Shown: positions 5,226-38,227 of the stretch, piece by piece
How the letters are laid out: the number at the start of each line of letters is the position of its first letter
Numbering within the stretch: position 1 is the first letter of the stretch
NCBI GenBank assembly: GCA_031177685.1
Contig: JAPSGI010000005.1
Coordinates: forward strand, 62,001 to 126,000
Direction of reading: 5' to 3'
DNA from: Solirubrobacteraceae bacterium
Lineage (GTDB): Bacteria > Actinomycetota > Thermoleophilia > Solirubrobacterales > Solirubrobacteraceae
DNA length: 64,000 bases
Notes under the pieces: model-generated
Seen by the model: the letters and a program-made list of their open reading frames with translations, nothing else
The model's database searches: none
Told to the model about the DNA's origin: nothing
Translations under genes and position numbers: made by a program

Positions 5226-5243
5226 CGATCCTCTCGCTATCCT
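5223..5243 (+). promoter_or_regulatory. Hairpin and -10 element upstream of tRNA-Lys
   Basis: TAGCGA (5223-5228) and TCGCTA (5234-5239) form a perfect 6-bp inverted repeat with a 5-base loop, starting at the TPR gene stop. No T-run follows, so it is not a clear terminator. TATCCT (5238-5243) overlaps the right arm and lies 12 bases before the tRNA 5' end, a good position for a -10 box giving a short 5' leader. No convincing -35 hexamer is seen. Confidence 0.4.
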
Positions 5244-5255
5244 GCTCCCCGTTCC

Positions 5256-5329
5256 GGGCCGTTAGCTCAACTGGTTAGAGCAGGGGCCTCTTAAGCCCAA
5301 GGTTGAAGGTTCGAGTCCTTCACGGCCCA
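5256..5329 (+). tRNA. tRNA-Lys (anticodon CTT)
   Basis: 74-base cloverleaf. Acceptor stem GGGCCGT/ACGGCCC, D-arm GCTC/GAGC, anticodon loop CTCTTAA with anticodon CTT at 5290-5292 (reads AAG), T-arm GAAGG/CCTTC with loop TTCGAGT, discriminator A at 5329. The outermost anticodon-stem pair is a G-A mismatch. CCA is not encoded. The next base (5330) is T, and the aminotransferase ATG begins at 5331, so tRNA 3' processing would leave an mRNA with a single-base leader. Confidence 0.97.
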
Positions 5330-5330
5330 T

Positions 5331-6122
5331 ATGTCGCTCGCCTGCCTCGACGGCGCCGTGATGCCGGTCGCCGAGGCCTCGATCTCCGTGACGGACGAGG
5401 GGCTGCTGCGGGGCGACGGCGCCTTCGAGGTGCTGCGCCTGTACGGCGGGCGGCCGTTCGGGCTCGACGAGCACCTCGCGCGGATGGGGCGCTCGGCCGC
5501 CAACCTCCGCCTGGTGCTGGACCCGGAAGCGGTGCGCGCGGACGTCGAGCTTCTGCTCCGCGAGGCGGCGCCCGGCGACGCGCTGCTGCGGCTCGTGGCG
5601 ACCCGCGGCGGGCGCCGGATCGCGTTGCTGGAGGAACTCCCGGAGCACGCGCCCACGATCAGCCTGGCGTCCGTGACGTACGCGCCGACGCGGATCCTCG
5701 ACGGCGTGAAGTCGCTCTCCTACGCCGGCAACATGCTGGCGACGCGCCTGGCGAAGGAGGCCGGCGCGGACGAGGCGCTGCTCGTCACGCCGCACGGACG
5801 CGTGCTCGAGGGGCCGACGTCGAGCTTCTTCTGGGTGCGCGGCGGCGAGCTGCTCACCCCGCCGCTGGACGACCACGTCCTGGACTCGATCACGCGCCGC
5901 CTGGTGCTCGAGGAGACCGAGGCGCGCGAGGCCTCCTGCACGCTGGAGGACCTGACGGGCGCGGAGGAGGCCTTCCTCGCCTCGACCGTGCGCGAGGTCC
6001 AGGCGGTGTCGGCGATCGACGGGCGTGAGATCGCCGTCGGCGGGCCGCTCACGGCGCGGGCCGCGGAACGCGTGCGCGCTCGCATACAGGCGGCGGTGGG
6101 CCCTCCCGAGCCGGTGGGCTGA
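5331..6122 (+). CDS. Class IV (fold-type IV) PLP aminotransferase / aminodeoxychorismate lyase family
   Basis: 263 residues. The N-terminus (GDGAFEVLRLYGGRPFGLDEHLARM) is typical of the IlvE / D-amino acid aminotransferase / PabC family. The PLP lysine is probably in GVKSLSYAGNM (about residue 127), and the cofactor-binding LEGPTSSFFWV follows. Substrate cannot be decided; length and the short C-terminus fit PabC (4-amino-4-deoxychorismate lyase) as well as a branched-chain or D-amino acid enzyme. The start fits the family N-terminus exactly, yet it lies 2 bases after the tRNA-Lys end with no ribosome site, so leaderless translation is likely. Confidence 0.85.
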   Translation: MSLACLDGAVMPVAEASISVTDEGLLRGDGAFEVLRLYGGRPFGLDEHLARMGRSAANLRLVLDPEAVRADVELLLREAAPGDALLRLVATRGGRRIALLEELPEHAPTISLASVTYAPTRILDGVKSLSYAGNMLATRLAKEAGADEALLVTPHGRVLEGPTSSFFWVRGGELLTPPLDDHVLDSITRRLVLEETEAREASCTLEDLTGAEEAFLASTVREVQAVSAIDGREIAVGGPLTARAAERVRARIQAAVGPPEPVG

Positions 6123-6126
6123 GGCG

Positions 6127-7206
6127 CTGCGCGTCCTCACGGTCATCGGGAACCGGCCGCAGTTCGTCAAGGCGGCCGCGGTGTCGCGCCGGCTGCGCGC
6201 GGAGCACCACGAGCTGCTGGTCCACACCGGCCAGCACTACGACGACGAGCTCTCGCGCATCTTCGTGGACGAGCTCGACGTGCCGGCGCCGGAGCGCGAG
6301 CTGGGCGTCCACGACGGCACGAACACGTCGCAGACCGCGCGCATGCTGGCGGCGCTGGAGCCGCTGCTGGACGAGGAGGCGCCCGACGCGGTCCTCGTCT
6401 ACGGCGACACGAACTCCACGCTGGCCGGCGCGCTGGCCGCCGCGCAGCGCGGCGTACCGGTGGTCCACGTCGAGGCCGGGATGCGCTCGTTCGACCGCGC
6501 GATGCCCGAGGAGCTCAACCGCGTGCTCACCGATCACCTGTCGGACCTGCTGCTGGTCCCGTCCCGCACGGCGGCGGACAACCTGGCGCGCGAGGGCGTG
6601 GCCGGTCGCGTGGAGGACGTGGGCGACGTCATGGTGGACGTGGCACGGCTCATGGCGCCGCGCGTGCGCGAACGGACGGACGCGCTGCAGTCGTGGGGAG
6701 TCGCCCCCGGCGAGTACCTGCTGGCCACCGCCCACCGCGCCGGCAACGTGGACGATCCCGCGCGGCTCGCGCGGCTCGTCGAGCTGCTGCTCGCGGTGGA
6801 GGGGCCGGTCGTGCTGCCCCTGCACCCGCGCACGCGCGCACGGCTGGAGGCGGGCGGCATGCTGGGGCGCCTGGAGCAGGCGCCCGCCGTGCGGCTCGGC
6901 GCGCCCGTGGGCTACCTCGAGTTCTCGGCGCTCCTGCACCACGCCCGGGCGGTGCTCACCGACTCGGGGGGCGTGCAGAAGGAGGCGTACCTCGCCGCCG
7001 TGCCCTGCGTCACGCTGCGGCCCGTGACCGAGTGGGTCGAGACCGTGGAGGCCGGCTGGAACGCGCTCGTCGACCTCGACGCCGAGCGGGCGCGCGCCGC
7101 GCTGGAGCGCCCACCCCCCGCCGCGCATCCCGCGCTCTACGGCGACGGCGAGGCCGGCGCCCGCGTGGTCGCGGCCATGGCAGCCCATACACTGCGCCGT
7201 CGATGA
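6127..7206 (+). CDS. wecB: UDP-N-acetylglucosamine 2-epimerase family (non-hydrolysing)
   Basis: About 359 residues. RVLTVIGNRPQFVKAAAV begins the fold; HTGQHYD, YGDTNST, HVEAGMRS, LATAHRAGN and TDSGGVQKEA are the conserved UDP-binding and catalytic motifs. It interconverts UDP-GlcNAc-type and UDP-ManNAc-type sugars. No ATG, GTG or TTG exists where the family starts; the family N-terminus would begin at the CTG at 6127. The only standard start in frame is a GTG at 6025, 98 bases inside the previous gene. It could be WecB or the related WbpI, which acts on diacetamido uronic acids. Confidence 0.85.
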   Translation: MRVLTVIGNRPQFVKAAAVSRRLRAEHHELLVHTGQHYDDELSRIFVDELDVPAPERELGVHDGTNTSQTARMLAALEPLLDEEAPDAVLVYGDTNSTLAGALAAAQRGVPVVHVEAGMRSFDRAMPEELNRVLTDHLSDLLLVPSRTAADNLAREGVAGRVEDVGDVMVDVARLMAPRVRERTDALQSWGVAPGEYLLATAHRAGNVDDPARLARLVELLLAVEGPVVLPLHPRTRARLEAGGMLGRLEQAPAVRLGAPVGYLEFSALLHHARAVLTDSGGVQKEAYLAAVPCVTLRPVTEWVETVEAGWNALVDLDAERARAALERPPPAAHPALYGDGEAGARVVAAMAAHTLRRR

Positions 7207-37562: not shown

Positions 37563-38152
37563 GGCTCCGCCGGGCCGGCGCGGAACGTGCGCACCATGCC
37601 GCGCGTCGCCGCGCGGTAGCGCGCCGCGGGGGCGCGGGCGGTGCGGAAGAAGATCAGCGTGAACGTCACCCGCCCGCGCCGGCGCAGGGCGGTGACCCGA
37701 ATCGCCTGGCGCAGGCTCGTGCGCGCGAACACGCCGCGCGCGCTCACCGTGGAGCCGGGGTAGCGCGCGCCGCGCAGCGGCTGCGGGCGGCCGACGCGCA
37801 GGGCGCGGTAGCCCTCCAGGGAGTTCGCGGTGCGCCGGACGTAGACGTCCGCCGGCAGGTCCCGTCCGTCGGCGCTGCGGTCGGCCGCGATGCTCACCGC
37901 CAGCAGGCGATCGCCCGAGCGCACCAGCGTGGCGCCGCGCGCGCCGCGCGCCTTCCAGCCCGGCGGGATGCCGAGCGAGAACCCGGCCCGCCGGTTGACG
38001 ACGCGCGTCCAGCCGCGCGGCAGCGGCCCGCGCCGGTCCGCGCGCTCCTGCGGCGTCGTGGAGACGGGCGCCGGCTCGTCGTCGCCGCACCCGCCGGCGG
38101 CTGTGGCGCAGGCCAGGACCGGCAGCAGTATCGCGAGGCGGCGCGGCGGCAA
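37559..38152 (-). CDS. Putative lipoprotein directly downstream of tRNA-Arg
   Basis: 197 residues. A lipoprotein signal (AILLPVLACATAAGGC, modified Cys at 22) then a domain GWTRVVNRRAGFSLGIPPGWKARG resembling the fold of small actinobacterial PsbP/LpqN-like lipoproteins; no firm family. The only start near the signal peptide is a TTG at 38152, one base after the tRNA-Arg discriminator. There is no room for a ribosome site, so initiation is probably leaderless. It converges with pyrE. Confidence 0.75.
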   Translation of the reverse strand: MPPRRLAILLPVLACATAAGGCGDDEPAPVSTTPQERADRRGPLPRGWTRVVNRRAGFSLGIPPGWKARGARGATLVRSGDRLLAVSIAADRSADGRDLPADVYVRRTANSLEGYRALRVGRPQPLRGARYPGSTVSARGVFARTSLRQAIRVTALRRRGRVTFTLIFFRTARAPAARYRAATRGMVRTFRAGPAEP

Positions 38153-38153
38153 G

Positions 38154-38222
<69 letters not shown>

Positions 38223-38227
<5 letters not shown>

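What the first reader, a model, noticed from the sequence alone, without database searches (positions are those of the whole stretch)
5256..5420. tRNA-Lys discriminator separated by a single base from the start codon of an aminotransferase gene
The tRNA ends at A5329, CCA is not encoded, T5330 follows and ATG is at 5331-5333. The aminotransferase N-terminus starts exactly there, so the start is firm. There is no ribosome site outside the tRNA. A single transcript cut by RNase Z after the discriminator would give mature tRNA-Lys and an mRNA with a 1-base leader. Leaderless translation is well known in actinobacteria, but producing the leaderless end by tRNA 3' processing would couple tRNA and enzyme supply. 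The same geometry recurs at 38152.
Basis: partly seen in the sequence, partly recalled or inferred. Interest (0 to 1): 0.78.

Follow-up and report, generated by a model that had tools for sequence, protein, structure and literature searches.

The report
tRNA-punctuated near-leaderless aminotransferase mRNA
In a soil-type actinobacterium (order Solirubrobacterales) a metabolic gene begins one base after a tRNA gene, with no ribosome site and no promoter of its own, so cutting out the tRNA probably also makes the start of the mRNA, as in animal mitochondria; the same layout recurs next to other tRNAs in related bacteria, including the selenocysteine tRNA next to selA or selB.

Summary
tRNA-Lys(CTT) ends at discriminator A5329, T5330 follows, and ATG 5331 starts a class IV aminotransferase. 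The start is firm: an in-frame TGA (5304-5306) lies inside the tRNA, and the conserved N-terminus begins at ATG 5331. No Shine-Dalgarno (SD) or -10 element lies in the T-arm. A TATCCT box sits 12 nt upstream of the tRNA, where 36 of 45 tRNAs in this genome have one. T5330 is ordinary: 44 of 45 tRNAs here are followed by T or CT. Most orthologues without a neighbouring tRNA (62 of 87) carry TANNNT 6-9 nt before the start, a leaderless promoter; tRNA-linked ones almost never do (2 of 17). The linkage is old (three families), but its spacer varies (1, 4, 9, 21-165 nt). The geometry recurs with other pairs: tRNA-Sec|T|ATG-selA or -selB, tRNA-Gln|CT|ATG-glmU, tRNA-Gly and tRNA-Arg cases.

Best reading: one transcript, cut by RNase Z, gives tRNA plus a 5'-monophosphate mRNA with a 1-nt leader, i.e. 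bacterial 'tRNA punctuation'. Cleavage and translation are inferred. Coupling tRNA with enzyme supply is not supported for Lys. The second junction (38152) is real but starts with TTG, a poor leaderless start in mycobacteria.

The parts
5238..5243 (+). TATCCT, -10-like box of the tRNA-Lys transcript, 12 nt before the mature tRNA 5' end
   Evidence: 36 of 45 tRNAs of the genome have TANNNT 8-18 nt upstream, 2.2 expected by shuffling
5256..5329 (+). tRNA-Lys(CTT), CCA not encoded, discriminator A5329
   Evidence: ARAGORN; RF00005 69.9 bits
5304..5306 (+). TGA inside the tRNA T-arm, in frame with the aminotransferase; bars any start further upstream
5330..5330 (+). single spacer base T: the ordinary first trailer base of tRNAs here, and the predicted 1-nt leader
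   Evidence: 44 of 45 tRNAs of the genome are followed by T (23) or CT (21)
5331..6122 (+). class IV aminotransferase (aminodeoxychorismate lyase / branched-chain / D-amino acid transaminase type; substrate not settled)
   Evidence: PF01063 E 6e-49; NCBIfam matches all below cut-off; 104 distinct orthologue junctions
6025..7206 (+). wecB (UDP-GlcNAc 2-epimerase); its longest ORF overlaps the aminotransferase end, so probably the same operon
   Evidence: TIGR00236 270 bits; ORF table
38154..38227 (-). tRNA-Arg(CCT), discriminator A38154
37559..38152 (-). lipoprotein-like ORF starting with TTG one base (C38153) after tRNA-Arg; homologues in about 7 relatives at E < 1e-10
   Evidence: no Pfam match

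Best explanation
The tRNA-Lys promoter drives one transcript: tRNA-Lys, aminotransferase, then probably wecB. The folded tRNA covers the place where a 30S subunit would need to sit on AUG 5331, so the full transcript cannot readily start translation there. RNase P trims the tRNA 5' end and RNase Z cuts after discriminator A5329. That releases mature tRNA (CCA added later) and an mRNA with a 5' monophosphate beginning U-AUG, translated by the leaderless pathway this gene normally uses in the order. The tRNA thus takes the place of the leaderless promoter as the device that sets the mRNA 5' end: tRNA punctuation in a bacterium. Shown: geometry, firm start, lack of SD and own promoter, tRNA promoter box, RNase Z gene, leaderless signature in relatives, recurrence with other tRNAs. 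Inferred: co-transcription, cleavage exactly at 5329/5330, translation of the 1-nt-leader product.
For: Junction and firm start. No TANNNT and no SD before the start. TATCCT at the usual tRNA promoter position. T5330 matches the (C)T trailer of 44 of 45 tRNAs. RNase Z above the curated cut-off (305 bits). Leaderless promoter in 62 of 87 unlinked orthologues (1.6 expected by shuffling) against 2 of 17 linked ones. Short gaps in other lineages: 4 nt in three genomes of genus g24, one of them with an in-frame TAG directly before the ATG, and 9 nt in G054; G000 and g24 fall in different supported parts of the gene tree. Same geometry with other genes: tRNA-Sec|T|ATG-selA (458 bits to TIGR00474) and -selB (312 bits), tRNA-Gln|CT|ATG-glmU, tRNA-Gly|T|ATG, tRNA-Arg(CCG)|T|ATG; 19 linked selC-selA/selB cases, 10 with gaps of 1-10 nt, none with TANNNT and one with an SD-like motif. 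RNase Z cuts directly after the discriminator and is inhibited by CC (PMC7479834). AUG 5331 is predicted unpaired and the cloverleaf forms.
Against: No RNA data. The one-base gap is not conserved, and the only same-genus genome does not cover the junction. In mycobacteria AUG/GUG must be exactly at the 5' end (PMC4633059); a 1-nt leader was not tested there. Processing could go another way: RNase E was named as a possible 3' cutter in Streptomyces (PMC4681348), and B. subtilis RNase Z made half of its cuts on one substrate 5-6 nt downstream, which would destroy the start codon here. Abutment is not shown to be more frequent than expected from spacing alone.
Confidence: 0.66

Rival explanations
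1. A promoter hidden inside the tRNA gene starts a primary leaderless mRNA at A5331, as in the unlinked orthologues; tRNA processing plays no part.
For: The gene is normally leaderless from its own promoter in the order. Promoters of other sigma factors would not be seen by a TANNNT scan.
Against: No TANNNT 5-10 nt before the start here, nor in the g24 or G054 cases; none in the 19 linked selC-selA/selB cases. The -10 position lies in the T-arm and acceptor stem, whose sequence is fixed by the tRNA.
Confidence: 0.12
2. The junction is a by-product of compaction: an old tRNA-Lys/aminotransferase neighbourhood whose spacer shrank. The gene is expressed poorly or from heterogeneous processed or degraded ends, with no defined punctuation mechanism and no regulatory meaning.
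For: Spacer length drifts from 1 to 165 nt and linkage is lost many times. The rate of abutment is not shown to exceed chance.
Against: The enzyme is well conserved and its reading frame intact; spacer shrinkage went with absence of the leaderless promoter; exact tight junctions recur with essential-type genes (glmU) and with selA/selB.
Confidence: 0.17
3. The true start lies further inside the gene (GTG 5358 or ATG 5361), giving an ordinary 5' UTR after the tRNA.
For: In-frame GTG and ATG at codons 10 and 11.
Against: Both would remove the conserved xLACLDG block found near the start in nearly all orthologues, and neither has an SD (a GAGG motif appears only before a later GTG).
Confidence: 0.03

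Closest known systems
tRNA punctuation of animal mitochondrial transcripts (Ojala, Montoya and Attardi 1981, cited in PMC11996679)
   Same: tRNAs abut reading frames; RNase P and RNase Z cuts define mRNA ends; mRNAs have almost no leader
   Different: Here it is a bacterial chromosome, one gene pair with its own promoter and CCA-less tRNA; cleavage not yet shown; only some tRNAs are involved
Leaderless mRNAs of actinobacteria (Mycobacterium PMC4633059; Streptomyces PMC4681348)
   Same: No SD; AUG or GUG at or next to the 5' end; the unlinked orthologues have the -10 box 6-9 nt before the start, as expected for this class
   Different: Those 5' ends come from transcription starts; here the 5' end would come from tRNA 3' processing and carry a monophosphate and one extra U
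tRNA and mRNA on one transcript (e.g. tRNA-Lys within the 159-nt 5' UTR of TK0306 in Thermococcus kodakarensis, PMC4247193; E. coli tRNA-tufB, own knowledge)
   Same: A tRNA lies upstream on the same transcript as an mRNA
   Different: There the tRNA sits inside a long 5' UTR; here no leader of any length is left after the tRNA

Membership tests
tRNA punctuation (mitochondrial type) | Reading frame abuts the tRNA with no leader of its own | tested here: met
   1 nt between A5329 and ATG 5331
tRNA punctuation (mitochondrial type) | tRNA and mRNA are on one transcript | tested here: inconclusive
   tRNA promoter box present, no own promoter, same strand, no room for a terminator; no RNA data
tRNA punctuation (mitochondrial type) | RNase Z cut after the discriminator makes the mRNA 5' end | not testable with these tools
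   RNase Z gene present, trailer starts with U and not CC; cleavage itself not measured
Leaderless mRNA | No SD and a 5' end at or within a few nt of an AUG/GUG start | tested here: inconclusive
   No SD; the 5' end is predicted, not mapped. At 38152 the start is TTG, which fails as a leaderless start in mycobacteria
Primary leaderless transcript from its own promoter | -10 box TANNNT 6-9 nt before the start | tested here: not met
   absent here; present in 62 of 87 unlinked orthologues
Class IV aminotransferase (PF01063) | Family profile match above gathering score | tested here: met
   167.3 bits against 28.5

The most novel reading that the evidence does not exclude
tRNA punctuation is a regular way of making near-leaderless mRNAs in Solirubrobacterales: tRNA genes serve as promoter plus 5'-end processing module for the adjoining gene. 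In the selC-selA and selC-selB pairs, tRNA-Sec maturation would be an obligatory step before the selenocysteine enzymes can be made.
Probability: 0.45. Interest if true: 0.78.

Novelty: new variant of a known kind. Interest (0 to 1): 0.62.

Why it matters
If true, bacteria also use tRNA excision to set the 5' end of mRNAs, a device taught as special to organelles. It would show leaderless translation of a processed, monophosphate mRNA in actinobacteria, make translation of a gene wait for tRNA maturation, and offer a simple natural test of how close to the 5' end a start codon must be. The selC-selA/selB cases put a tRNA and its own dedicated enzymes under one cut.

Tried and rejected
Same-genus genome G001: contig begins inside wecB, junction not covered. 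Pattern for Lys junctions across the order: most hits were chance RTG/TTG in trailers or terminators; only G000 and G005 were the aminotransferase. tRNA-Arg(CCT) junctions in other genomes: none of the 24 loci other than the window's own carries the lipoprotein, so that tight pair was not seen elsewhere. Coupling of tRNA-Lys and enzyme supply as the reason for the layout: rejected as a selected function because linkage and spacing are not kept. A general excess of abutting tRNA/gene pairs: not shown; the pattern also misses cases (its last position excludes T, and it did not return the window's own junction). RNA fold of the junction is no more stable than shuffles (z -0.09); used only to see that AUG is free. 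Rough gene calling in the window gave only weak support for leaderless promoters in general (8 of 43 genes, 3.0 expected), so the leaderless argument rests on the orthologues. Literature searches for a bacterial precedent found none, but the library is open-access papers only.

Full report
WHAT IS THERE. The window belongs to a 3.15 Mb draft genome (G000). Its relatives in named collections are Solirubrobacterales/Solirubrobacteraceae of class Thermoleophilia. tRNA-Lys(CTT) occupies 5256-5329 (Rfam tRNA 69.9 bits). CCA is not encoded. T5330 follows the discriminator A5329, and ATG 5331 opens a 263-aa class IV aminotransferase (PF01063, E 6e-49; NCBIfam hits to aminodeoxychorismate lyase, branched-chain and D-amino acid transaminases are all below their cut-offs, so the substrate is not settled). 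The start is firm for two reasons: an in-frame TGA lies at 5304-5306 inside the T-arm, with no other start codon after it, and the conserved N-terminal block xLACLDG begins at residue 3.

THE TRNA CONTEXT. I collected 45 tRNA genes of the genome. 36 of 45 have a TANNNT box 8-18 nt upstream (2.2 expected by shuffling); tRNA-Lys has TATCCT at 5238-5243, 12 nt upstream, the usual place. None encodes CCA. In 44 of 45 the base after the discriminator is T, or C followed by T. So T5330 is not a remnant of an untranslated leader: it is the normal trailer start of tRNAs here, and at the second site the C38153 and the T of the TTG start codon make the same CT. RNase Z is known to cut directly after the discriminator and to be inhibited by C residues there (PMC7479834); an RNase Z gene is present at 305 bits.

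THE GENE IS NORMALLY LEADERLESS. I examined 104 distinct orthologue junctions. Of 87 without a tRNA within 300 nt, 62 have TANNNT with a 6-9 nt spacer before a candidate start codon (1.6 expected by shuffling), usually TAGGCT-like, and SD motifs are rare. This is the signature of transcription starting at the start codon. Of 17 with a tRNA-Lys(CTT) upstream on the same strand, only two closely related genomes have it. The tRNA-linked members therefore lack the device that the others use. In the tight cases there is no room for it, since the -10 position falls in the T-arm and acceptor stem. These are counts on related sequences, with a lenient choice of start, so they should be read as strong tendencies.

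EVOLUTION OF THE JUNCTION. The tRNA-Lys/aminotransferase neighbourhood occurs in three families (f1, f2, f4), so it is probably old and has been lost many times (11 changes on the gene tree). Distances from discriminator to start: 1 (G000), 4 (G024, G208, G209; ARAGORN includes one C and gives 3), 9 (G054, GTG), 21 with an own -10 box (G037, G231), 26, 28, 29, 38 with a GGAGG SD (G051), 56-165 in others. In G209 an in-frame TAG directly precedes the ATG, so that start too is certain. G000 and genus g24 lie in different supported clades. The one-base gap is thus one end of a drifting spacer and not a conserved distance; this weakens the idea of selected coupling between tRNA-Lys and the enzyme, but not the mechanism.

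THE GEOMETRY RECURS. A scan of 232 genomes of the order for a tRNA 3' end followed by (N)TATG, checked with ARAGORN and family profiles, found: tRNA-Sec|T|ATG-selA in several genomes (TIGR00474, 458 bits, for G036), tRNA-Sec|T|ATG-selB in G106 (TIGR00475, 312 bits), tRNA-Gln|CT|ATG-glmU in G112 (TIGR01173, 498 bits), tRNA-Gly|T|ATG before a Polyketide_cyc2 protein in two f4 genomes, tRNA-Arg(CCG)|T|ATG before an alkylsulfatase-like protein in G081, and tRNA-Thr followed by CT or T and the ATG of a small conserved ORF in genus g19. I then looked at about 70 loci brought in by the tRNA-Sec family. Nineteen have selA or selB just downstream. Their gaps are 1 (six), 2, 4, 7, 10, then 21-119; none has a TANNNT box and only one an SD-like motif. 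In many Sec loci the downstream gene is neither, so selC linkage is not universal.

MECHANISM. The simplest account is one transcript from the tRNA promoter. A folded tRNA one nucleotide from the AUG should keep a 30S subunit from binding there (inference from ribosome footprint size). RNase Z would release tRNA and a 5'-monophosphate mRNA starting U-AUG. Works cited in PMC5741613 and PMC4448216, namely Giliberti 2012 and Krishnan 2010, report by their titles that a 5' phosphate is required and that nearness of the start codon to the 5' end favours leaderless translation in E. coli. In mycobacteria AUG or GUG at the 5' end is necessary and sufficient, while TTG and CTG fail (PMC4633059). So ATG after one base is a plausible leaderless start, while TTG at 38152 is doubtful. 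Steps shown: anatomy, lack of alternatives, comparative pattern. Steps inferred: co-transcription, site of the cut, translation.

SECOND SITE. tRNA-Arg(CCT) has discriminator A38154, then C38153, then TTG 38152 of a 197-aa lipoprotein-like ORF with homologues in several relatives. An in-frame TAA inside the tRNA bars any start further upstream, and the signal peptide begins at once. The tight tRNA-Arg junction was not found in relatives. The geometry claim stands, but functional equivalence is less likely.

VERDICT. Real, firm at sequence level, and more than a one-off within the order. It works like mitochondrial tRNA punctuation combined with actinobacterial leaderless translation. I know of no description in bacteria, and none was found in the open-access library searched. 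The claim of tRNA/enzyme coupling is not supported for Lys but is worth testing for tRNA-Sec with selA/selB.

Noticed in passing
L257, L259-L261, L263, L278, L280, L296, L297, L316: selC (tRNA-Sec) abuts selA or selB with 1-10 nt between discriminator and start codon, no SD and no -10 box: a clearer and functionally meaningful version of the finding.
   Followed up: partly
45 tRNA loci of G000: All tRNA genes but one are followed directly by T or CT after the discriminator and none encodes CCA; the same trailer rule is seen in nearly all tRNA-Sec genes of the order.
   Followed up: partly
L062, tRNA-Val(GAC), G000:C31:115279-115351: A long ORF with a twin-arginine-like N-terminus starts about 28 nt after this tRNA behind a purine-rich SD-like stretch (GGCAGGGGGAG): a tRNA/mRNA pair with an ordinary leader in the same genome.
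   Followed up: no
L291, G000:C21:68217-68308: The window's own genome carries a tRNA-Sec gene, not next to selA or selB.
   Followed up: no
6025-7206: wecB has no ATG/GTG/TTG at its expected N-terminus (about 6130); its only start codon upstream overlaps the aminotransferase end by about 100 nt, so it may be translated by coupling or from CTG.
   Followed up: no
L258, L262: A conserved 87-88 aa protein without any Pfam match starts 2 nt after tRNA-Thr(CGT) in genus g19.
   Followed up: no
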